64,000 nucleotides of DNA, taken from the NCBI RefSeq assembly GCF_000424465.1, contig NZ_AUJY01000008.1:1-64000 (forward strand), given 5' to 3'. A program made the translations under genes and the position numbers. Origin of the DNA: Butyrivibrio hungatei NK4A153. GTDB taxonomy: Bacteria > Bacillota > Clostridia > Lachnospirales > Lachnospiraceae. Below, piece after piece: positions 6,548 through 17,225 of the stretch. The notes beneath the pieces are model-generated. The model searched no databases. It was given only the letters and a program-made list of their open reading frames with translations, and had not been told where the DNA came from. Position 1 is the first letter of the stretch, and each line of letters opens with the position of its first letter.

Positions 6548-7738
6548 ATGACTAATAAAAATGGACGTTTCGGTATACACGGCGGACAGTATATACCCGA
6601 GACACTTATGAATGCAGTAATAGAGCTTGAAGAAGCTTACAATCATTACAAGAACGATCCTGAGTTCAACGCAGAGCTCACAGAGCTTTTAAATGAATAT
6701 GCGGGAAGACCTTCACGCCTTTACTACGCTGAGAAGATGACAAAGGACCTTGGCGGAGCAAAGATCTATCTTAAGAGAGAGGACCTTAACCACACGGGCT
6801 CTCATAAGATAAATAACGTTCTCGGACAGGCTCTTTTGGCCAAAAAAATGGGAAAAACAAGGCTCATAGCTGAGACGGGCGCAGGACAGCACGGTGTTGC
6901 AACAGCTACGGCTGCAGCTCTTATGGGCATGGAGTGCGTTGTATTTATGGGCGAAGAGGATACTAAGAGACAGGCTCTTAACGTGTACAGAATGAGACTT
7001 CTCGGCGCAGAAGTTATCCCTGTTAAGTCAGGAACCGCAACACTTAAGGACGCCGTATCGGAGGCCATGAGAGAGTGGACTTCAAGAATTGACGATACGC
7101 ATTACTGCCTCGGATCTGTCATGGGACCTCATCCGTTCCCAACAATAGTTAGAGATTTCCAGTCTGTTATCTCTAAGGAGACTAAACAGCAGATTCTTGA
7201 AAAAGAGGGAAGACTTCCCGATGCGGTTATCGCATGCGTTGGCGGCGGATCAAACGCTATCGGAAGTTTCTATAACTTTATAGAAGATAAGGAAGTAAGG
7301 CTTATCGGCTGCGAGGCAGCAGGACGCGGAATAGATACTTTCGAGACTGCAGCGACCGTCAATACAGGAAGAGTGGGAATTTTCCACGGAATGAAGTCAT
7401 ACTTCTGCCAGGATGAGTACGGCCAGATTGCGCCTGTTTACTCGATATCCGCAGGACTTGATTATCCCGGTGTCGGACCTGAGCACGCATACCTTCATGA
7501 TATCAAGAGAGCTGAGTATGTGCCTGTGACTGACGACGAGGCTGTTAATGCTTTTGAATATCTTTCACGCACAGAGGGAATCATCCCCGCAATTGAGTCT
7601 GCTCATGCGGTTGCCTATGCTATGAAGGTCGCAAAAGAGTATGACAAAGACAAGATCATCGTTGTAACAATCTCGGGAAGAGGAGATAAGGACTGCGCAG
7701 CAATCGCTCGCTACAGAGGGGAGGATATCCATGAGTAA
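6548..7738 (+). CDS. trpB: Tryptophan synthase beta chain
   Basis: PLP enzyme joining indole to serine. 396 residues from the ATG at 6548, chosen over a GTG at 6533 because AAAGGA (6536-6541) lies between them. Lys87 in HTGSHKINN is the PLP lysine; [17 protein letters not shown] and GGGSNAIG are the ammonium/indole and phosphate-binding motifs. It overlaps trpA by 8 bases, as expected for subunits of one complex. A small hairpin (6491-6511) lies in the gap after trpF and may segment the mRNA. Confidence 0.97.
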
Positions 7739-8498
7739 CATTAAGAAAGCATTTGAAAACGGCAAGGCATTTATCGCCTTCATCACATGTGGAGATCCCG
7801 ACCTTGAGACCACCAAAAAAGTTGTTCTTGAAGCATGCAAAAACGGTGCAGATCTTATAGAGCTCGGAATACCTTTTTCCGATCCCACAGCCGAGGGACC
7901 TGTAATTCAGGGTGCAAATATCCGCGCGCTGGCAGGAGGCGTTACAACAGATAAAGTTTTTGATCTTGTAAGGGAACTTAGAAAAGAAACAGATACACCT
8001 TTCGTGTTTATGACTTACGCAAACGTAGTATTTTCATATGGTTCTGAGAAATTCATCTCACTCTGCAAAGAGACGGGCGTAGACGGAATTATTCTTCCCG
8101 ATCTTCCGTTTGAGGAAAAAGAGGAGTTTTCTCCTGTCTGCGATAAATACGGAGTAGATCTTATTTCGCTTATCGCGCCCACATCCGAGAACAGAATCTC
8201 AATGATCGCTAAAGAAGCACAGGGCTTTATCTACATCGTATCAAGTCTTGGTGTAACAGGAACAAGATCTGAGATTAAGACAGACCTTGCATCGATCGTA
8301 AAAGTCATTCGCGAGAACACCGATGTTCCCTGCGCAATCGGCTTTGGAATCTCAACACCCGAGCAGGCAGCCAAGATGGCAGCAGTATCTGACGGCGCTA
8401 TTGTTGGTTCTGCGATAATCAAGATTCTTGAGAATTATGGAAAAGAAGCTCCGAAGTATGTCGGAGAGTATGTGAAGTCAATGAAGGACGCGCTGTGA
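7731..8498 (+). CDS. trpA: Tryptophan synthase alpha chain
   Basis: Cleaves indole-3-glycerol phosphate to indole and G3P inside the TrpAB complex. 255 residues. [17 protein letters not shown] carries the catalytic acid pair (Glu44, Asp51); [12 protein letters not shown] and [10 protein letters not shown] are phosphate-binding loops. A GGGGAGGA site lies within the end of trpB. It is the last gene of the operon, followed by a bidirectional terminator. Confidence 0.97.
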
Positions 8499-9645: not shown

Positions 9646-10881
9646 ATGAGAAAAGTTTTTGATGCGCTAAAATACGCTGTGATCATGGCGTTTTGTATTT
9701 TTTTATTTGTTAAAACAGACTGTAAGGCTTATGCTGCTGACTGGTATATTTCACCGTCGGGTAACGATTCAAACGCCGGCACGTCTGTATCCGCTCCGTT
9801 TAAGAGCCTTATGAGAGCTCAGGAGGCGGCTTCGGTGGGAGACACCGTGTATATTATGGGCGGCACATACAATGATTTTGGTATTGCGGCCAAAGACAAC
9901 AACTACAATTATGTAAATGAGTTTACAAAGAGCAACATCACTTACAGAGCTTACACATCCAAGGAGGTACCTGTATTTGATTTTTCAAGAGTGCCTACGG
10001 ATAAGAGAGTGGCGGCTTTTCATATCAAGAGCGGAGTGCAGGGAGTGTATTTCCTCTGCTTTAAAGTTACGGGAGTTCCTGTGGGAAACCAGAAGCAGTC
10101 TGAGTGTTTCAGAGTAGAGGGAAATGCCACGTTTAATCAGATCACATGCTGTGATTCACAGGCAAACGGTTTTTATTTCTGCAACAACGGAAGCGGTAAG
10201 TGCATAAAGTGCGATGCTTATAATCTTTTCACTTCGAATAGAAATTCCAATTCGAATACCGACGGTTTCGGCGCGCACGGTCAGGGCGTTGTTTTCCAGC
10301 AGTGCAGGGCATGGTCATGCGGTGATGACGGATTTGACTGCATTACATCCAAGGGTGCCAACACTTTCGAGAACTGCTGGGCATTTAATATGAATAAAGG
10401 CGGAGATTCCAATGGATTCAAGATTGGTGGCTACGGCACGGGCAAGGTTCCGAACACAGTTCCTGTACATACCGTATCACATTGCATTGCTGTAAATAAT
10501 GCATCCAACGGATTCTATGCAAACCACCAGCCCGGACAGGCAGCAAACTGGACCAACAATGTGGCTTACGGTAATGCAAGAGGCAACTATAACATGCTTG
10601 AAAGAGTGAGTCCTTCGGATTCCAAGGATATTCCGGGAACAAGAGAGTTCCTTAGATGCAATATTTCTTTAAATGGAGCGGTTACAAATATCGGTAGAGG
10701 AACAAAAGTTGGAAGTTGTTCATGGAACAGTGGATATAACTGCACTAACGACGATTTTGAGAGCCTTGATGCTTCACAACTTTCAGCACCTCGAGGCGCA
10801 AACGGAGTGCTTCCCAATATCAACTTTATGAAGCCCGTGAGCGGAAGTGATCTTCAGGATATCGGATATTATATGAATTGA
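9646..10881 (+). CDS. Secreted pectate lyase-like parallel beta-helix protein (PL9 type)
   Basis: 411 residues with a signal peptide (charged start, hydrophobic 11-24, AYA site near 30-32). The mature protein begins DWYISPSGNDSNAGTS..PFKSL, the usual opening of PL9-type right-handed beta-helix lyases. Later rungs carry DGFGAHGQG, CGDDGFDC, GGDSNGFKIGG and NASNGFYANHQPG, which match the calcium and substrate face of PL9 pectate lyases as I know them. It probably cleaves homogalacturonan outside the cell by beta-elimination. Many cysteines suggest disulfides. AAGGAG precedes the ATG. It is monocistronic, with no pectin transport genes nearby. Confidence 0.85.
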   Translation: MRKVFDALKYAVIMAFCIFLFVKTDCKAYAADWYISPSGNDSNAGTSVSAPFKSLMRAQEAASVGDTVYIMGGTYNDFGIAAKDNNYNYVNEFTKSNITYRAYTSKEVPVFDFSRVPTDKRVAAFHIKSGVQGVYFLCFKVTGVPVGNQKQSECFRVEGNATFNQITCCDSQANGFYFCNNGSGKCIKCDAYNLFTSNRNSNSNTDGFGAHGQGVVFQQCRAWSCGDDGFDCITSKGANTFENCWAFNMNKGGDSNGFKIGGYGTGKVPNTVPVHTVSHCIAVNNASNGFYANHQPGQAANWTNNVAYGNARGNYNMLERVSPSDSKDIPGTREFLRCNISLNGAVTNIGRGTKVGSCSWNSGYNCTNDDFESLDASQLSAPRGANGVLPNINFMKPVSGSDLQDIGYYMN

Positions 10882-11117: not shown

Positions 11118-11471
11118 ATGGAAAAAGAAAAGCGTGACTACAGGAAGGAGCTTAATGCAATTCGGATTGAGAGAGAAGAAGTGCAAAGCAGATACGCCGG
11201 ATTGCGAAAAGAACTTGAAAGTCAAAACGAGGAGCTGGTTCATAGGATGAATAATGAATACAGAGATTTAGAGTATTCAAACATAAATAACGATCCTGTA
11301 CTCGTGGACATGTACGAAAGGCGTGCAGCATATTTTAGAAGGAGTAATAACGATATTTCAGATTTTTATGATTCTATAGAACAAAAAGAACGAAAAATAA
11401 TGGATGAACTTGATAAAAAGGAATATAGAATCAAAAAGGAAATGAGCAGCGACGAAAAAAATAATGAGTGA
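11118..11471 (+). CDS. Small coiled-coil protein, candidate Lap1-like LXG partner
   Basis: 117 residues, almost entirely charged alpha-helix, with heptad-like stretches (EREEVQSRYAGLRKELESQNEE and a C-terminal KERKIMDELDKKE). No signal peptide, membrane segment or cysteine. I cannot assign a domain by sequence alone. Its place as first gene before a WXG-like protein and an LXG effector matches LXG-associated alpha-helical partners of type VII secretion loci (Lap1/DUF3958), which act as chaperones or targeting factors. I do not see the FxxxD motif reported for Lap1. The gap to the next gene is only 15 nt. Confidence 0.55.
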   Translation: MEKEKRDYRKELNAIRIEREEVQSRYAGLRKELESQNEELVHRMNNEYRDLEYSNINNDPVLVDMYERRAAYFRRSNNDISDFYDSIEQKERKIMDELDKKEYRIKKEMSSDEKNNE

Positions 11472-11486
11472 TTAGGAGTATGAAAA

Positions 11487-11930
11487 ATGGCTGATGGAAT
11501 GGAAATAAAGATTAAAGGCGATGAAATAGAAAGTTTTAGGAAACGTCTTTTCGTAGCAGGATGTTATCTTGGAGAAGACATCGACGAGGCTAAGAAAGAT
11601 CATAAAAGTAATATAACAGCAAATAAAAGTGCACATATGAGATTCGCTGAGGAGAAAGAGTTGCGGAAAAATACACAGGATTCGGCAATTAATGAATGTA
11701 AAAATATTGCAACTATGAAAGAGAACTATGAAGATGCCGACCAGCAGGCAAGCAATTATATAACAGTGGACTTAACTGCAAATATACCCGATTATAATAA
11801 GTACAATACTAAAAACTCAAATACGCTGGATCAGGCTGAGTTGCAGGAGATATATGACGAAATTATGGCAGATGAAGCAAAGAAAAAAGCTAGAAAAGAA
11901 GCTTTTGATAAACTGTTTAAAGGGCATTGA
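11487..11930 (+). CDS. WXG100/Lap2-like helical protein of the LXG cassette
   Basis: 147 residues. The first 90 look like a helix-turn-helix hairpin of the WXG100/DUF3130 kind: 'MEIKIKGDEIESFRKRL' start, central polar turn, and YEDADQQASNY at the end of the second helix, the position of the YxxxD/E-like signal in ESX proteins. A C-terminal tail of about 55 residues ends in a basic helix (AKKKARKEAFDKL). AGGAGTATGAAAA precedes the ATG. The helical-hairpin call is inference; its position just before the LXG effector supports it. Confidence 0.5.
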   Translation: MADGMEIKIKGDEIESFRKRLFVAGCYLGEDIDEAKKDHKSNITANKSAHMRFAEEKELRKNTQDSAINECKNIATMKENYEDADQQASNYITVDLTANIPDYNKYNTKNSNTLDQAELQEIYDEIMADEAKKKARKEAFDKLFKGH

Positions 11931-11980
11931 TTAAAGAAAAGTATAAGATTATGAGTGAAAAACGTAAGTGAGGAAAAACA

Positions 11981-13627
11981 ATGGTAGAAAGTGATTATTT
12001 AGATCAGGGAAAGCTGAAAATGCAGTGTCATACAGCGATTTCCGTTTTTACAGCAAATAACGGGAAGCTCTCAGCATTAAGAAGAATATATAATTCGTCA
12101 CGAGATGTTACTTTTACAGGTAAGGGATCAGAAAGTTTTTTTGGACATTGTGATAATTATGTTGTTCTTATAGATGCCATCATGACTGCAAATGATTGTG
12201 ATATTGCAGATAATAAAACTCTGTGGGCTATGCTTGGCTTTGATATTCTTGATGGCAGTGTTATTTTACCCAAAAAAAGAGAAGCAAAGCAAAATGAAGA
12301 GCATGAACGTCATGAAGCCGATAAAGCAAAAAGGAGAAGAGATTCTGCGCCTGAAGATGAAAAAGGGTATTGGGATTCAAAATATCATAATCATTTGAAT
12401 AGGGCAGATATTTATGAGGAAGAATACAATTACTGGAAAGGACTCGAAGAGAAGTTTGATCAGATAGAAACTGACTCAAAAGGTTTATTTAAGGATAGTG
12501 TGTCTATTAGGACAGCAGCAACAAATGGACTTAAGGAACTTTCAAGAGATTTTTCTACTAAATCATTTGTATTCTTTTATAACCCGCTTTGGAAAAACGG
12601 CATAGAAAAACTGTGTAATCAGGTTTCCATGGTTGATAAATGCAAGGAAAAGTGGAAAGATGGAAACGGTGTATATAATCTTGATGTTTTAAAAGATATA
12701 TTAAACAATAGGATGGATGAGTTATCTGCACCTGAAGTTACGGCTTTCGAGGAGGTTCTTAAAGAACTACATCCAGAGGCTCAGAAGCAGGTTATCGGAC
12801 ATGCTGTTGCCGGAGATGCTGACATAAAAGATCTTATTCAGGGAGTTGTTAAGTCTTTCGGATCCGGAGCTAAAATAGGAGTTGATGAATATAATGTTTT
12901 AACTTCAAAAGATGATAAAAGTGCCAGAAAAGCTTGGCTTAAGCTTACAAAAGATTTTGAGTCTGCTACTGCAACTTGGGCAGGAACATTATTTTATACT
13001 GGAAATATAAGAGAAGCATTTGGCACGTTGACAACCGATGTGAAAAAGGACTTTATTAAATCTATTTCGGAAGAAGGCGATGATTTAGTAAATGTAAGTG
13101 GATTCGAAATAATAAAACGTTCCTTTAAAAAAGATTTTAAGTCTTATGCTTTTAAGAATGTAGAAAAAGCCGGTGAGGCTGCAATAGAAAATGCAGATGA
13201 TATAGCTGAGGGAACATTAAGAGGCATAAAAATAAAAGCTAAAGATGCAGCGAGATTAGATAATGTAAAGGCCGGAGTAAAATGGGCGGGCACGCTTGTT
13301 GACTTTGCTTTTAATGCATCAGATAACTTGGAAGAGCAGGAGCTGGCGCGTAAGTCAGGCATAGAAATGTCAAACGGAAGAGTGGCTGCGGAAACAGTAA
13401 TTGAGACGCTTGTTGATGTAGGTGTTGGATTTGTCGGTAATGCAGCTGCAGGGTTTGCAATAGGTGGGGCGGCAGCGCTTCTAGGACTTTCAGCTCCTGC
13501 CATTGCTGTTACAGCTGCGAGTGCAGTTGTAGTTTGGGGGATTAACGAAGCCTTTAAACACAAAACGGGAAAAGATGCAGGAGAAAATGTTGCAGATATT
13601 GCGTGTGATATTATGGGATTAAAATAG
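11981..13627 (+). CDS. LXG-family type VII secretion effector with C-terminal glycine-rich membrane domain
   Basis: 548 residues. Residues 1-190 are helical and resemble the LXG targeting domain: an N-terminal hairpin, G.GS.SFFGHCDNYVVLIDAI, and the closing FDQIETDSKGLFKDSVSIRTAA..GLKEL typical of LXG proteins. The middle is polar and helical. The C-terminus (roughly 465-525) has small-residue hydrophobic segments (VGVGFVGNAAAGFAIGGAAALLGL, then APAIAVTAASAVVVWGI), like glycine-zipper pore-forming LXG toxins such as TelE. Membrane-protein genes follow directly, as expected for immunity. No EssC, EsaA or other secretion gene is in the window, so it would use a machine encoded elsewhere. No catalytic toxin domain was recognised. 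Confidence 0.65.
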   Translation: MVESDYLDQGKLKMQCHTAISVFTANNGKLSALRRIYNSSRDVTFTGKGSESFFGHCDNYVVLIDAIMTANDCDIADNKTLWAMLGFDILDGSVILPKKREAKQNEEHERHEADKAKRRRDSAPEDEKGYWDSKYHNHLNRADIYEEEYNYWKGLEEKFDQIETDSKGLFKDSVSIRTAATNGLKELSRDFSTKSFVFFYNPLWKNGIEKLCNQVSMVDKCKEKWKDGNGVYNLDVLKDILNNRMDELSAPEVTAFEEVLKELHPEAQKQVIGHAVAGDADIKDLIQGVVKSFGSGAKIGVDEYNVLTSKDDKSARKAWLKLTKDFESATATWAGTLFYTGNIREAFGTLTTDVKKDFIKSISEEGDDLVNVSGFEIIKRSFKKDFKSYAFKNVEKAGEAAIENADDIAEGTLRGIKIKAKDAARLDNVKAGVKWAGTLVDFAFNASDNLEEQELARKSGIEMSNGRVAAETVIETLVDVGVGFVGNAAAGFAIGGAAALLGLSAPAIAVTAASAVVVWGINEAFKHKTGKDAGENVADIACDIMGLK

Positions 13628-13660
13628 TTTTGTTTTACTACTAGTTGATGGAGGAGAATA

Positions 13661-14455
13661 ATGGGTTTAGTAACTGTTTTAATAATATTGGCATGGGAAT
13701 GTATAGTAGCCATGTTTGCTTTTTTGCTTCATGTTATTCCGCTTAAAAATTATTATAAGAATATTGTTAAGGTACAATTGTTTTTATCATCAAGTGCACT
13801 TATATTGGGACTGTTTGTTCATTACTATGTGAAAATGAATTACGATTCGGGTATCTTTTACGGAAGCAAGTGGGATGATAGAGGCGAGCCAGAAATGGTG
13901 ATATTGTTTTTGACATTCTTTATTTGTTCATTGATCCATTTTGCTGCTGATAAGAAGAATAGCCGCAATAAGATAGAGACTTTTGTATTAAGAGCTGATG
14001 AATACAAAATAGTAAAAGATGTTGAGTATTTATATATGCCGACCGTAAAGAATTATTGTGAATTTGACAGAGGAATAATTGCCTTTTCAGGTAATATGCC
14101 TAATCGAGAGATTGATGGCACATTTACATGTAGGATGGTAAAAGACGGAATATATGAATGCTTTGAGTATAAGGCATTGTCAGGCGAAAATAATAAGTTG
14201 AGTTTTTCAAGAATAAAACAAATTATTATTTGGCTCTTAGGTGCAATAGATGTAGTGTTGGCAGGCATTTGGATTTCACAAGATCCTAAAATGCATATAG
14301 ATGTTGTGTCGCATTTTTTGCCGGGGTTAAGTTTAATTCTTTTTGGAACGATGCTTTTTGAACTGCTTAAAGGAACTAAGGGATTATTTGCCAAAATTAT
14401 GATTGCGTTCTCGATTTTTTTAATTATCATAGGAATCGTTAGCTTTTTTAAATAA
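13661..14455 (+). CDS. Membrane protein, candidate immunity protein (copy 1)
   Basis: 264 residues. N-terminal helices near 2-24, 35-55 and 75-90, a soluble stretch of about 90 residues (FVLRADEYKIV to LSFSRIKQ), and three C-terminal helices (about 190-260). No known family recognised. It follows the toxin by 34 nt with GGAGGAG before its ATG, and nearly the same protein is repeated at 14798. Membrane immunity proteins for pore-forming LXG toxins are known, so immunity is the simplest inference. The N-terminus and several extracellular-side positions differ between copies while the middle is almost identical. Confidence 0.6.
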   Translation: MGLVTVLIILAWECIVAMFAFLLHVIPLKNYYKNIVKVQLFLSSSALILGLFVHYYVKMNYDSGIFYGSKWDDRGEPEMVILFLTFFICSLIHFAADKKNSRNKIETFVLRADEYKIVKDVEYLYMPTVKNYCEFDRGIIAFSGNMPNREIDGTFTCRMVKDGIYECFEYKALSGENNKLSFSRIKQIIIWLLGAIDVVLAGIWISQDPKMHIDVVSHFLPGLSLILFGTMLFELLKGTKGLFAKIMIAFSIFLIIIGIVSFFK

Positions 14456-14468
14456 TTAGGGGGTTAAA

Positions 14469-14744
14469 ATGGACGTTAAAGTAAAAGATCTACTGCCAAT
14501 CGGTAGTGTAATATGGCTCAGGGATTCAAAGCATCCGCTTATGATTTTTGGAGTTAAGCAGCAGAATCTAGAGACTAAGCAGGAATATGATTACATAGGA
14601 GTCCTTTATCCGGAAGGAAATCTTGGAGGAGAATCACAGTTTATGTTTATGCATAAGGACATCGAAAGAGTGTTGTTCCACGGCTTTGAAGACGAGAGCA
14701 GAACAGAGTTCATTGAGAAGCTGTCTGAGTTCTACGGAGAGTGA
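14469..14744 (+). CDS. DUF4176 protein (copy 1)
   Basis: 91 residues. LLPIGSVIWL, a short KHPLMIFGV strand, YDYIGVLYPEGNLG and a C-terminal F.GFEDE..TEF.EKL helix match the DUF4176 pattern I know from LXG type VII loci. No signal or membrane segment. The role of DUF4176 is not settled; its constant company with LXG toxins and immunity genes suggests a helper or cytoplasmic immunity role. It lies 13 nt behind the membrane protein and differs from the second copy (15608) at only two residues (D7N and one H to R). Confidence 0.75.
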   Translation: MDVKVKDLLPIGSVIWLRDSKHPLMIFGVKQQNLETKQEYDYIGVLYPEGNLGGESQFMFMHKDIERVLFHGFEDESRTEFIEKLSEFYGE

Positions 14745-14797
14745 TATTTGGCATAAAGGCTATTTGATAAAAAAGTAATGCTAGTGTGGTAAAGGAT

Positions 14798-15595
14798 ATG
14801 CTTATAGTAACTATAACGATAATATTAGCGTGGGAATGTATAGTAGTTATGTTTGGCTTTTTACTTCACGTTATTCCACTTAAAAATTATTATAAAAATA
14901 TTGTTAAGGTACAATTGTTTTTATCATCAAGTGCACTTATATTGGGGCTGTTTGTTCATTACTATGTGAAAATGAATTACGATTCGGGTATTTTTTACGG
15001 AAGCAAGTGGGATGAAACCGGTGCTTCAGATATGTTGGTTTTGTTTTGGGTATTCTTTATTGGTTCTTTAATCCATTTTTATGCTGATAAGAAGAATAGC
15101 CGTAATAAGATAGAGACTTTTGTATTAAGAGCTGATGAATACAAAATAGTAAAAGATGTTGAGTATTCATATATGCCGACCGTAAAGAGTTATTGTGAAT
15201 TTGACAGAGGAATAATTGCTTTTTCGGGTAATATGCCTGCTCGAGAGGTTGATGGCACATTTACATGTAGGATGGTAAAAGACGGAATATATGAATGTTT
15301 TGAGTATAAGGCATTATCGGGCGAAAATAATAAGTTGAGTTTTTCAAGAATAAAACAAATTATTATTTGGCTCTTATGCGCAGTAGATGTAGTGCTGATA
15401 GGTATTTGGCTTTCACAAGATCCTAAAATGTATATAGATATTGTGACGCGCTTTTTGCGGGGGTTAACTATAATTCTTTTTGGAACGGTCCTTATTGAAC
15501 TGCTTAAAGGAACAAAGGGATTGTTTTCCAAAATTATGATTGCGTTCTCGATTTTTTTTATCATCATAGGATTTATTAGCTTTTTTAAATATTAA
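14798..15595 (+). CDS. Membrane protein, candidate immunity protein (copy 2)
   Basis: A close paralogue of the protein at 13661 with the same helix layout. The ATG at 14798 is chosen because it aligns with the copy 1 start (both reach ILAWE after the same number of residues); a GTG at 14786 is possible. Only AAAGGA, one base before the ATG, could serve as a ribosome binding site, so translation may depend on upstream reading. The soluble middle is nearly identical to copy 1, while residues near 1-20, 68-85 and 200-230 vary. Confidence 0.6.
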   Translation: MLIVTITIILAWECIVVMFGFLLHVIPLKNYYKNIVKVQLFLSSSALILGLFVHYYVKMNYDSGIFYGSKWDETGASDMLVLFWVFFIGSLIHFYADKKNSRNKIETFVLRADEYKIVKDVEYSYMPTVKSYCEFDRGIIAFSGNMPAREVDGTFTCRMVKDGIYECFEYKALSGENNKLSFSRIKQIIIWLLCAVDVVLIGIWLSQDPKMYIDIVTRFLRGLTIILFGTVLIELLKGTKGLFSKIMIAFSIFFIIIGFISFFKY

Positions 15596-15607
15596 CAGGG
15601 GGTTAAA

Positions 15608-15883
15608 ATGGACGTTAAAGTAAAAAATCTACTGCCAATCGGTAGTGTAATATGGCTTAGGGATTCAAAGCATCCGCTTATGATTTTTGGAGTTAAGCAG
15701 CAGAATCTAGAGACTAAGCAGGAATATGATTACATAGGAGTTCTTTATCCGGAAGGAAATCTCGGCGGAGAATCACAGTTTATGTTCATGCATAAGGACA
15801 TCGAAAGAGTGTTGTTCCGCGGCTTTGAAGACGAGAGCAGAACAGAGTTCATTGAGAAGCTGTCTGAGTTCTACGGAGAATGA
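15608..15883 (+). CDS. DUF4176 protein (copy 2)
   Basis: 91 residues, 89 identical to the protein at 14469, with the same GGGGGTT-type site 12 nt downstream of its membrane-protein partner. The starts of the two DUF4176 genes are 1139 bp apart, which gives the duplicated-unit length. Confidence 0.75.
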   Translation: MDVKVKNLLPIGSVIWLRDSKHPLMIFGVKQQNLETKQEYDYIGVLYPEGNLGGESQFMFMHKDIERVLFRGFEDESRTEFIEKLSEFYGE

Positions 15884-15937
15884 TATTTGGTATAAGGGGC
15901 ATTTGATAAAAAAAGTAATGCTAATGTGGTAAAGGAT

Positions 15938-16129
15938 ATGTATATAGTAACGATAGCAACAATAATAGCATTGGAACTTATAATAGCTACATTTGCTTTT
16001 ATACTTAGAGTTATTCCGTTAAAGAATTACCATAAAAATATTGCCAAAGTACAGATTGCCTTACTGGGAATAGCTTCTTTACTGGGAGCGTTTGTTTTCA
16101 TATGCTTTAATTTTGACAGGTATAATTAA
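15938..16129 (+). pseudogene. Truncated third copy of the membrane protein
   Basis: 63 codons align with the first 60 or so residues of the proteins at 13661 and 14798 (MYIVTI..IPLKNYHKNIAKVQ) and stop after the second helix (FNFDRYN). No DUF4176 copy follows. It diverges more from the other copies than they do from each other, so it is an older remnant. A short two-helix protein could still be made. A GTG at 15926 is an alternative start. Confidence 0.6.
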
Positions 16130-16261
16130 TCTTTTTATGTAAAGTGCGTTGAGTGAAATATAGCTGAAGTGAAATTGCAGAATGATAAATTTCATTATGG
16201 ACTTTAATCGGACCTTACGGTATAATTACTCTGTTTTAATAAAAAAAGAACTATATATAGA

Positions 16262-16368
16262 TAATTATTGGCAAAATTAGAGAAATCTAATGACGCAAAG
16301 CTATAGGGTCCGAAAGGACAGCCAGTTGCAGTTGAGTTTATAGCGGCGCGTCAGTGCCGCTATTTTTT
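16262..16368 (+). promoter_or_regulatory. c-di-GMP-I (GEMM) riboswitch with terminator
   Basis: The aptamer core reads TTGGCAAA (16269-16276), a P2 hairpin ATTAGA-GAAA-TCTAAT whose GAAA loop fits the tetraloop receptor, GACGCAAAGC (16292-16301), then GGGTCC-GAAA-GGAC and AGCCAGTTGC (to about 16329). The base before CAAA is G (16271), the position that is G in c-di-GMP aptamers and A in cGAMP ones. An intrinsic terminator, ATAGCGGC (16340-16347) with GCCGCTAT (16356-16363) and T residues to 16368, follows at once. It should control the VanW-family gene by premature termination. Whether it is an on or off switch cannot be read with certainty. Confidence 0.87.
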
Positions 16369-16400
16369 ATTTATTGAAAAATCTAGAAAAAAGGAATTAC

Positions 16401-17225
16401 GTGCAAGCAATGAGAAAGAAAAGTATTACTATGGCAATCGCAGTGCCGGTGCTGTGCGCAACAATCATCGGATATGGAGATAATTCATCATCACCTGAAG
16501 AAGTTTTTGTACATATGGAAGAAACATTTGCTCCGGGAGATCAGGAAGGAATTACCGAAACAGTTGAAGCTGGCGCAGAAGTGGTGAATCCTGTTGAAGA
16601 TAATGCAGTTACAGAGGAAGTTGTAAGCGAAGCACCTGTTGCTGAAGCTCCGGCTCCGGCGCCTGAAAATATAGCTTGGGCAAGCATCGGTCATGAAGAT
16701 ATCATGCTGTATCCCGCTAATGAGGATGCAAATAACGTAAATGCGAGAGTCGCATGCGGATATATAAACGGATATATTGTAAAACCGGGAGAGACATTCT
16801 CATACGCAAGCACGATCGGAAGGGGAACACCACCTGAAAAAGGATATGTTATAGCACATGTTGTCGGAGGATATGATTACGGCGGAGGCGTATGTAAGAT
16901 AAGCAGCGCTCTTTACCACGCAGCAATGAATGCCGGTTGCAAGATTGTTGAAAGACACAATCATTCAAAACCTGTTGACTACTATAAGCAGGGAGATGAT
17001 GCAGCTATTGCATACAAAACCAGAAAAGACTTCAGGTTCAGGAATATATTTGACCATGATGTTATGATACAGGCAGCTTACGATGAAACCGGATATCATC
17101 TTGATATCCTTGCACCGCAGCCTGCAGGAATGCCTGTCGCACCTGCTCCTCAACCTGAAGGAACACCGGTTGTTCTTGCACCACAGCCTGAAGGAACACC
17201 GAATACTCCTGATCCTCAGCTTTAA
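16401..17225 (+). CDS. VanW-family extracytoplasmic protein
   Basis: About 274 residues. A hydrophobic segment (MAIAVPVLCATIIGY) makes an N-terminal signal or anchor. An acidic Pro/Ala linker (EAPVAEAPAPAPE) leads to the VanW domain: NVNARVACGYINGYIVKPGETFSY, TIGRGTPPEKGY, GGGVCKISSALYHAAMNAGCKIVERHNHS and a C-terminal YH..I. The tail has three APQPxGxP-like repeats and may cross the wall. The GTG at 16401 is preferred because AAGGAA lies just upstream; ATG 16410 and TTG 16374 are alternatives. The biochemical role of VanW is unknown; a c-di-GMP riboswitch in front points to an adhesion or lifestyle switch. Confidence 0.8.
   Translation: MQAMRKKSITMAIAVPVLCATIIGYGDNSSSPEEVFVHMEETFAPGDQEGITETVEAGAEVVNPVEDNAVTEEVVSEAPVAEAPAPAPENIAWASIGHEDIMLYPANEDANNVNARVACGYINGYIVKPGETFSYASTIGRGTPPEKGYVIAHVVGGYDYGGGVCKISSALYHAAMNAGCKIVERHNHSKPVDYYKQGDDAAIAYKTRKDFRFRNIFDHDVMIQAAYDETGYHLDILAPQPAGMPVAPAPQPEGTPVVLAPQPEGTPNTPDPQL

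What the first reader, a model, noticed from the sequence alone, without database searches (positions are those of the whole stretch)
11118..16129. Orphan type VII LXG toxin cassette with two helical partners and no secretion genes
Gene order (small coiled coil, WXG-like protein, LXG protein with glycine-rich membrane tail, membrane protein, DUF4176) matches LXG effector modules, in which partners escort the toxin and membrane proteins give immunity. The C-terminal small-residue helices suggest pore formation like TelE. The effector and putative immunity sequences are not ones I recognise, so the pair may be new.
Basis: partly seen in the sequence, partly recalled or inferred. Interest (0 to 1): 0.6.

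Follow-up and report, generated by a model that had tools for sequence, protein, structure and literature searches.

The report
Hybrid type VII toxin-immunity cassette
A Butyrivibrio-type bacterium carries a satellite gene set that looks like a secreted weapon against other bacteria, and its toxic half and protective partner have evidently been exchanged with a set of the kind found beside the secretion machine.

Summary
The cassette is real: coiled coil, Lap1 (TIGR04197, over cut-off), 548-aa LXG-like effector with a small-residue-rich hydrophobic tail, two tandem units of six-span membrane protein plus DUF4176, then a membrane-gene remnant. "No secretion genes" holds only locally: another contig of the same genome has EssC, WXG100, YukD and two sister cassettes. 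YukC/EssB is absent, so the machine is not textbook T7SSb. The effector has no direct LXG match; 4 of 12 scanned homologues of its N-domain match PF04740 in register, so it is LXG-like by inference. Main new result: the effector is a mosaic. Up to about codon 276 it matches the cassette at the same site in Butyrivibrio sp. M55; beyond, it matches a main-locus effector (MaxChi 244; 0 of 1000 permutations reach it). The immunity candidate follows the second half, coil and Lap1 the first, and a deleted M55-type immunity gene remains downstream. Best reading: a membrane-active antibacterial T7SS effector whose tail-immunity half was exchanged between cassette types. New member of a known kind, with unnamed tail and immunity families. 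Toxicity, secretion and immunity were not testable; direction and donor are unresolved; a general DUF4176-hydrophobic-tail rule failed (5 of 19).

The parts
11118..11471 (+). 117-aa charged coiled coil, candidate Lap2-type escort
   Evidence: 86% identical to the M55 copy at the same site, 56-57% to two main-locus copies; no Pfam match over its cut-off
11487..11930 (+). 147-aa Lap1 escort (TIGR04197 / SACOL2603 / DUF3130 family)
   Evidence: TIGR04197 36.4 bits, cut-off 26; YxxxD at residues 81-85 and DxxSxxxAN at 38-46 (read by eye)
11981..13627 (+). 548-aa LXG-like effector; small-residue-rich hydrophobic stretch about residues 481-520
   Evidence: mosaic with break near codon 276
11981..12807 (+). 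left half of the effector gene, satellite-locus type (LXG-like N-domain)
   Evidence: 276 of 314 informative sites group with M55
12808..13627 (+). right half of the effector gene, main-locus type (tail)
   Evidence: 187 of 240 informative sites group with main-locus effector C4a
13661..14455 (+). 264-aa membrane protein, candidate immunity protein
   Evidence: six hydrophobic segments; 82% aa identity to the membrane protein behind C4a, 41% to that of M55 at this site
14469..14744 (+). DUF4176 protein (Ltc-type chaperone family)
   Evidence: PF13780 88.1 bits
14786..15595 (+). second copy of the membrane protein
   Evidence: 86% aa identity to the first
15608..15883 (+). second DUF4176 copy
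   Evidence: PF13780 88.9 bits; 97.1% DNA identity to the first
15926..16129 (+). remnant of an M55-type immunity gene with a large internal deletion
   Evidence: 15937-16103 is 97% and 16088-16373 is 95% identical to two separated stretches of M55 L019 (9662-9828 and 10415-10700)
16340..16363 (+). terminator-like hairpin behind the cassette
   Evidence: 10-pair stem followed by a T run; consensus match only, 4 such sites found against 2.1 expected in the region

Best explanation
The cassette encodes an antibacterial effector exported by the type VII machine encoded elsewhere in this Butyrivibrio-type genome. Inferred steps: Lap1 and the coil bind the LXG-like N-domain and present an export signal ([FY]xxx[DE] in Lap1); DUF4176 keeps the C-terminal part stable in the cytoplasm; after export the small-residue-rich hydrophobic tail enters a competitor's membrane and depolarises or permeabilises it; the six-span membrane protein protects producer and kin. 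Shown by sequence: the gene is a hybrid. Its N-half, coil and Lap1 are of the satellite-locus type, while its tail and the membrane gene behind it are of a type found in the main T7SS locus, and a decayed copy of the immunity gene that M55 carries in the same place lies downstream. So tail and immunity gene, probably with DUF4176, were exchanged as one block between the two kinds of cassette.
For: TIGR04197 and DUF4176 over cut-off. EssC-type ATPase at 1152.6 bits, cut-off 778.4, in the same genome, with YukD, trypsin-FHA and PP2C genes next to it and a WXG100 gene about 15 kb away. N-domain homologues match PF04740 in register: 4 of 12 scanned (of 15 found), E 3.6e-4 to 0.043 for a library of 24736 models. 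Mosaic: 554 informative sites, chi2 244.3, at most 17.6 in 1000 permutations. Membrane protein 82% identical to that behind C4a, 41% to M55's; coil and Lap1 nearer M55's (86%, 65%) than main-locus copies (56-57%, 32-35%). Immunity-type genes without the effector in 2 of 79 genus genomes. Polytopic proteins are published as immunity factors for the membrane-depolarising T7 toxins EsxX (ExiC/D) and TspA (TsaI/DUF443) (PMC12744356 abstract; PMC11322744 section 14).
Against: No direct LXG match. hhalign of five N-domains with 13 genus LXG domains: 22 columns out of register, 2.7% probability, score 22.5 against a shuffle maximum of 23.6; with 20 sequences in register over 119 columns but 1.9% probability, 21.4 against 20.9. 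No strict glycine zipper in the tail. AlphaFold of the effector failed (mean pLDDT 39.7). YukC/EssB absent, so export is by analogy. The DUF4176 copies here are closer to an M55 main-locus copy (96.3% DNA) than to the one behind C4a (94.1-94.5%), so C4a itself is not shown to be the donor. In GBS the membrane gene next to bltA, and in S. gallolyticus the six-span gene next to telE, did not protect (passages). Direction of exchange open. No toxicity, binding or secretion data.
Confidence: 0.8

Rival explanations
1. The C-terminal part is enzymatic or structural rather than membrane-active, and the membrane proteins serve export or anchoring rather than immunity.
For: No strict zipper in the tail; the effector matches no named family; membrane genes next to bltA and telE did not protect in published tests (passages).
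Against: The part conserved on other N-termini is the stretch that holds the small-residue hydrophobic segment; the membrane gene changes partner with the tail, is duplicated in tandem, and occurs alone in two genomes in which the effector was not found.
Confidence: 0.13
2. The mosaic reflects uneven divergence or convergence of two old paralogues, not recombination.
For: Both halves keep measurable divergence (dS 0.24 for W against M55 in the left part, 0.30 for W against C4a in the right part), and the change of partner is spread over codons about 218-295, so no recent clean event is seen.
Against: Protein and DNA identity both change partner; chi2 244 against at most 17.6 in 1000 permutations; the membrane gene changes partner too, and an M55-type immunity remnant lies downstream. 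Synonymous sites were not tested alone.
Confidence: 0.05
3. M55, not the window lineage, is the recipient: the long array is ancestral and M55 lost the middle and gained another tail.
For: Two genomes cannot polarise the event; the window keeps both immunity types.
Against: A decaying old-type immunity gene behind a new pair fits insertion in the window lineage; M55's tail sits directly before the intact gene of that type.
Confidence: 0.3
4. The satellite cassette is inert: a duplicated, unexpressed leftover.
For: It lies away from the machine; one gene is a remnant; promoter-like sites are no more frequent than in shuffles (18 against 22.3).
Against: Seven open frames; DUF4176 copies under strong purifying selection (dN at most 0.018 at dS up to 0.56); coil, Lap1, effector and a membrane gene kept at this site in M55.
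Confidence: 0.08

Closest known systems
GBS bltA LXG module (PMC11481500, passages seen)
   Same: Order: two small helical proteins, LXG toxin, membrane protein, DUF4176
   Different: Here the membrane/DUF4176 pair is duplicated, the effector is a hybrid, the LXG domain is too divergent for Pfam, and the cassette is on another contig than EssC
TspA-TsaI with LapT1, LapT2 and SACOL2601 in S. aureus (PMC11322744 passages and section 14; PMC9484751 abstract and passages)
   Same: Effector locus remote from the machine; Lap1 of the SACOL2603 family; DUF4176; string of non-identical membrane immunity genes
   Different: Lap and DUF4176 genes are split from tspA there and together here; no DUF443 match here; little recombination was reported among tsaI genes
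EsxX-ExiABCD and TelE-TipE (PMC12744356 abstract, section 7 and passages; PMC10434224 passages)
   Same: LXG-type effector with a hydrophobic, small-residue-rich C-terminus; six-span membrane proteins next door
   Different: No strict zipper in the tail; no DUF5085, DUF5079 or DUF5080 match
Ltc chaperones (DUF4176; Gkragkopoulou 2025, title only, seen in a reference list; PMC13355648 passages)
   Same: PF13780 protein; PDB 9dcs is a relative, E 3e-5
   Different: Here DUF4176 is duplicated together with the immunity candidate
Reduced T7SS variants T7SSc-T7SSj (PMC11217815, section 12 and passages)
   Same: EssC-type ATPase, WXG100, YukD-like protein, PPM phosphatase and FHA protein; no EssB; closest to T7SSf in these parts
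   Different: The FHA partner carries a trypsin-like domain; 'trypsin' has 0 occurrences in that paper's text. TsfV and kinases were not searched for here

Membership tests
LXG effectors (PF04740) | Profile match in the protein itself | tested here: not met
   No PF04740 at E<=5; 0 matches in the genome, control B. subtilis rings. Hence 'LXG-like', not filed as a PF04740 member
LXG effectors (PF04740) | Profile match in proteins sharing the N-domain | tested here: met
   4 of 12 scanned (15 found), in register: L081 3.6e-4, L096 0.0024, L089 0.013, L084 0.043, all below Pfam's cut-off score; 8 of 12 without a match
LXG effectors (PF04740) | [LF]xG motif | tested here: inconclusive
   FTG at residues 45-47; [LF]xG at that column in only some homologues (by eye)
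LXG effectors (PF04740) | Exchangeable C-terminal toxin region | tested here: met
Lap1 (DUF3130/TIGR04197; same family according to PMC9600955 passages) | Profile over cut-off | tested here: met
   36.4 bits, cut-off 26
Lap1 (DUF3130/TIGR04197; same family according to PMC9600955 passages) | FxxxD export motif | tested here: inconclusive
   [FY]xxx[DE] in 5 of 5 aligned copies, strict FxxxD in 1 of 5, YxxxD in the window (by eye)
Lap2 (DUF3958) | Profile match of the coil | tested here: not met
   not among Pfam matches at E<=5; role by position only
DUF4176 / Ltc | PF13780 over cut-off | tested here: met
   88.1 and 88.9 bits, cut-off 25
Glycine-zipper toxins (TelE, EsxX) | [GAS]xxxGxxxG or GxxxGxxx[GST] in the hydrophobic tail | tested here: not met
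   only hit at residue 292, outside the tail
Glycine-zipper toxins (TelE, EsxX) | Membrane depolarisation or permeabilisation | not testable with these tools
   needs expression
TsaI/DUF443 and ExiC/D immunity proteins | Pfam match | tested here: not met
   no family for 13661-14455 at E<=5
TsaI/DUF443 and ExiC/D immunity proteins | Polytopic membrane protein | tested here: met
   six hydrophobic segments here, 4-6 in the eight copies compared; model of 3 helices, strands, 3 helices, but mean pLDDT only 56.7
T7SSb machine | EssC | tested here: met
   TIGR03928 1152.6 bits
T7SSb machine | EssB/YukC | tested here: not met
   PF10140: 0 matches in the genome, control B. subtilis rings
T7SSb machine | EssA and EsaA | not tested
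   no search made

The most novel reading that the evidence does not exclude
The tail-immunity-DUF4176 half is a cassette that shuttles between the main T7SS locus and satellite loci. The nearly invariant DUF4176 gene closes each immunity unit and supplies the homology for exchange and tandem growth, and it recognises the toxic half of the effector rather than the LXG half. All of this would serve a T7SS form without EssB in which a trypsin-FHA membrane protein takes part.
Probability: 0.25. Interest if true: 0.62.

Novelty: new member of a known kind. Interest (0 to 1): 0.45.

Why it matters
The same locus is seen in two states (M55 and the window), with the remnant of the other immunity gene still in place. 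That predicts which gene should protect against which toxin half and gives a natural experiment for assigning partners: escorts go with the N-domain, the immunity candidate with the tail. It also points to T7SS warfare in Lachnospiraceae run by a machine without EssB.

Tried and rejected
Rejected: (1) 'No type VII machinery': EssC, YukD, WXG100 and two sister cassettes are on contig C4. (2) A general rule 'DUF4176 marks hydrophobic-tail effectors': it held in the discovery loci (8 of 9 tail genes with DUF4176 within 600 bp, 2 of 14 N-domain genes without the tail, and both exceptions have small-residue hydrophobic tails). But on 20 further loci that I picked, 19 of which gave a detectable gene, only 5 of 19 had such a neighbour, with the thresholds read off plus a cap on hydrophobic segments added. 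Many other neighbours are Gly/Ala-rich but not hydrophobic. Published facts also weigh against it: TspA 1-328, without its toxin domain, still needs the DUF4176 protein, and the telB cluster has one although TelB is, as I recall, an NADase. (3) Strict TelE-type glycine zipper: not in the tail. (4) Viral contigs: no relative in the one scan made.

Led nowhere: effector fold (pLDDT 39.7) and immunity fold (56.7), too poor for a fold search, so none was run; PDB sequence search for Lap1 and effector; hhalign against genus LXG domains, not significant and marginal; tRNA scan of the window (none).
Full report
WHAT IS THERE. The window is contig C6 of a 3.37-Mb genome in 31 contigs. The nearest named relative found is Butyrivibrio sp. 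M55. The genome listed as same-genus G069 carries the same sequence: 2,000-base stretches of its loci L022 and L024 occur, reverse-complemented, in L019 and L020. On the + strand, between a Pel9A-like beta-helix gene (9646-10881) and a VanW gene (16374-17225), lie a 117-aa coiled coil, a 147-aa Lap1 (TIGR04197, 36.4 bits, cut-off 26), a 548-aa effector, then membrane protein + DUF4176 twice (period 1137-1140 bp), then a 67-codon remnant. A terminator-like hairpin lies at 16340-16363 (4 such sites against 2.1 expected). The effector and the first membrane protein match nothing in Pfam or NCBIfam at E<=5; the second copy has one weak Pfam hit far below cut-off.

THE MACHINE IS ELSEWHERE IN THE GENOME. 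Contig C4 encodes a 1512-aa EssC-type ATPase (TIGR03928, 1152.6 bits, cut-off 778.4; over cut-off in 30 of 79 genus genomes). Next to it are a YukD-like protein (28.5 bits, cut-off 27), a trypsin-FHA protein, a PP2C phosphatase and a GH3 protein; a WXG100 protein (71.9 bits) lies about 15 kb away. Between them are two sister effectors of 545 aa (C4a) and 558 aa (C4b) with Lap1 genes, membrane proteins and four DUF4176 genes. YukC/EssB is absent from the genome (PF10140, control positive in B. subtilis); EssA and EsaA were not tested. So the 'orphan' is a satellite of a resident machine that is not canonical T7SSb. PMC11217815 (section 12 and passages seen) describes eight further variants; parts resemble T7SSf, but 'trypsin' does not occur in its text. 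A phmmer homologue (at least 498 aa) of the trypsin-FHA protein lies in the DNA around EssC in 12 of 18 genus loci examined, M55 among them.

IS IT AN LXG EFFECTOR? Directly, no: PF04740 gives nothing for the protein or the genome, though 15 of 79 genus genomes have matches, 11 over cut-off. Indirectly, yes. A profile of the five effectors finds relatives in 23 of 397 family genomes, own included. In the 20 loci fetched, the matches fall into 15 N-domain genes, of which one (L079) also has the tail and two run on into Rhs repeats, and eight proteins of 352-414 aa that share only the tail. Of 12 N-domain proteins scanned with Pfam, 4 match PF04740 starting near the same place and 8 do not; the four are under Pfam's own cut-off. 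Profile comparison with 13 genus LXG domains was not significant with five sequences (score 22.5, shuffle maximum 23.6, out of register). With twenty it was in register over 119 columns but marginal (21.4 against 20.9 for the best of 100 column shuffles, reversed 14.6, hhalign probability 1.9%). I therefore call it LXG-like and do not file it under PF04740.

THE HYBRID. At the same site M55 has coil, Lap1, effector and one intact membrane gene, with no DUF4176 in the 464 bases left before its contig ends. Window and M55 effectors are 69% identical, unevenly. Over codons 1-238 the DNA agrees at 86-94% per 30-codon block with M55, against 47-59% with C4a up to codon 208 and 76% in 209-238. From codon 299 on it agrees at 70-89% with C4a and 52-73% with M55 (leaving out the last, one-codon block). 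Of 554 sites informative between the two partners, 276:38 favour M55 left of codon 276 and 53:187 favour C4a right of it (chi2 244.3; 1000 permutations reach at most 17.6). The switch is gradual over codons about 218-295, so the break is not exact. The membrane protein follows the right half (82% identical to that behind C4a, 41% to M55's). Coil and Lap1 follow the left half (86% and 65% to M55's; 56-57% and 32-35% to main-locus copies). The remnant 15926-16129 and the sequence after it match two stretches of M55's membrane gene and its downstream DNA at 97% and 95%, with about 600 bases between them missing. Thus the block from about 12.8 to 15.9 kb sits between two stretches of satellite-locus type. 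The DUF4176 genes in it are closer to an M55 main-locus copy (96.3% DNA) than to the one behind C4a (94.1-94.5%), so the donor was a main-locus-type cassette, not demonstrably C4a itself. Which lineage received the block cannot be decided from two genomes; a decaying old-type immunity gene behind a new pair favours the window lineage.

IMMUNITY. Evidence that the membrane protein is the immunity factor: it changes partner with the tail; it is multiplied (8 matches including fragments in this genome; 5 matches in G231, where the neighbouring effector has both N-domain and tail); and single copies stand among unrelated genes in two genus genomes in which the effector search found nothing (G006 whole, G022 with the middle missing). 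Outside the genus the family was found in 1 other of 397 genomes. It has six hydrophobic segments; a weak model (pLDDT 56.7) places a strand-rich part between two groups of three helices. Polytopic proteins protect against EsxX and TspA. Against: in GBS and S. gallolyticus the adjacent membrane gene failed to protect.

DUF4176. PMC13355648 (passages) calls these proteins Ltc chaperones that bind a disordered region of some LXG toxins and stay in the cytoplasm. The eight copies of this genome and M55 are 95.6-100% identical in protein, with dN at most 0.018 at dS up to 0.56, while five compared membrane-protein pairs have dN 0.08-0.28. In the 20 fetched Lachnospiraceae loci (23 of the 27 non-own match rows), DUF4176 lies within 600 bases of 8 of 9 tail genes and of 2 of 14 N-domain genes without the tail (Fisher p 0.0007, genes counted as independent). 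Of the four rows not fetched, the tail rows G090, G168 and G215 have a DUF4176 hit on the same strand within about 0.8 kb, and the N-domain row G103 has one within about 1.4 kb. None of the 18 PF04740 loci of the genus that are over cut-off has one in the DNA held. So in this group it goes mainly with the C-terminal half. I then tested the stronger rule that DUF4176 marks hydrophobic tails on further loci; it failed (5 of 19). 'DUF4176 binds the right half' remains a hypothesis.

MECHANISM. Shown: gene content, presence of the machine, mosaic structure, membrane gene going with the tail. Inferred from known families: Lap-guided export, DUF4176 stabilisation, membrane attack by the tail, protection by the membrane protein. 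The tail has a hydrophobic stretch of 40 residues with 57% Gly/Ala/Ser but no strict glycine zipper.

NOVELTY. Module order, escorts, chaperone and tandem immunity genes are known from streptococci and staphylococci. Recombination among tandem T7SS immunity genes is known for esaG and tipC, with little evidence for tsaI (PMC9484751, abstract and passages). My searches for LXG tail-immunity exchange and for Butyrivibrio T7SS (listings only, 10 to 15 papers shown of 63 to 782) showed no title on this system; I did not open PMC12419801, the one listed paper that holds all three terms Butyrivibrio, type VII secretion and LXG, and most subscription papers are not held. I rate it a new member of a known kind, with unnamed immunity and tail families and an unusually clear record of module exchange.

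Noticed in passing
L006:17341-19092 (-); loci L183-L200: A trypsin-FHA protein lies between YukD and PP2C next to EssC; a phmmer homologue of at least 498 aa lies in the DNA around EssC in 12 of 18 genus loci (whether these also hold the trypsin domain was not checked). Possible core part of a Butyrivibrio T7SS form without EssB.
   Followed up: partly
L006:10502-11830 (-): A GH3-family protein follows EssC on the same strand; its homologue was found near EssC in M55 but in none of the other 17 genus loci examined, some of which end close to EssC.
   Followed up: partly
L080:4162-9393 (-), L095:1442-5070 (+): The same LXG-like N-domain is fused to Rhs repeats in two Lachnospiraceae genomes.
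   Followed up: no
L166, L167, L168, L169, L173, L174, L177, L181: Genes upstream of DUF4176 encode proteins of about 340-770 aa with long Gly/Ala-rich, not strongly hydrophobic C-termini that look strand-forming by eye; possibly another effector class served by DUF4176.
   Followed up: no
L114:7788-8405: Lone immunity-type gene in G022 that lacks the middle part of the family (205 aa), in a genome where the effector search found nothing.
   Followed up: partly
window 7731-8498 and 16374-17225: Ordinary-looking surroundings: a TrpA-like gene (recognised by eye) upstream and a VanW-family gene downstream. Mobile-element genes were not searched for.
   Followed up: no
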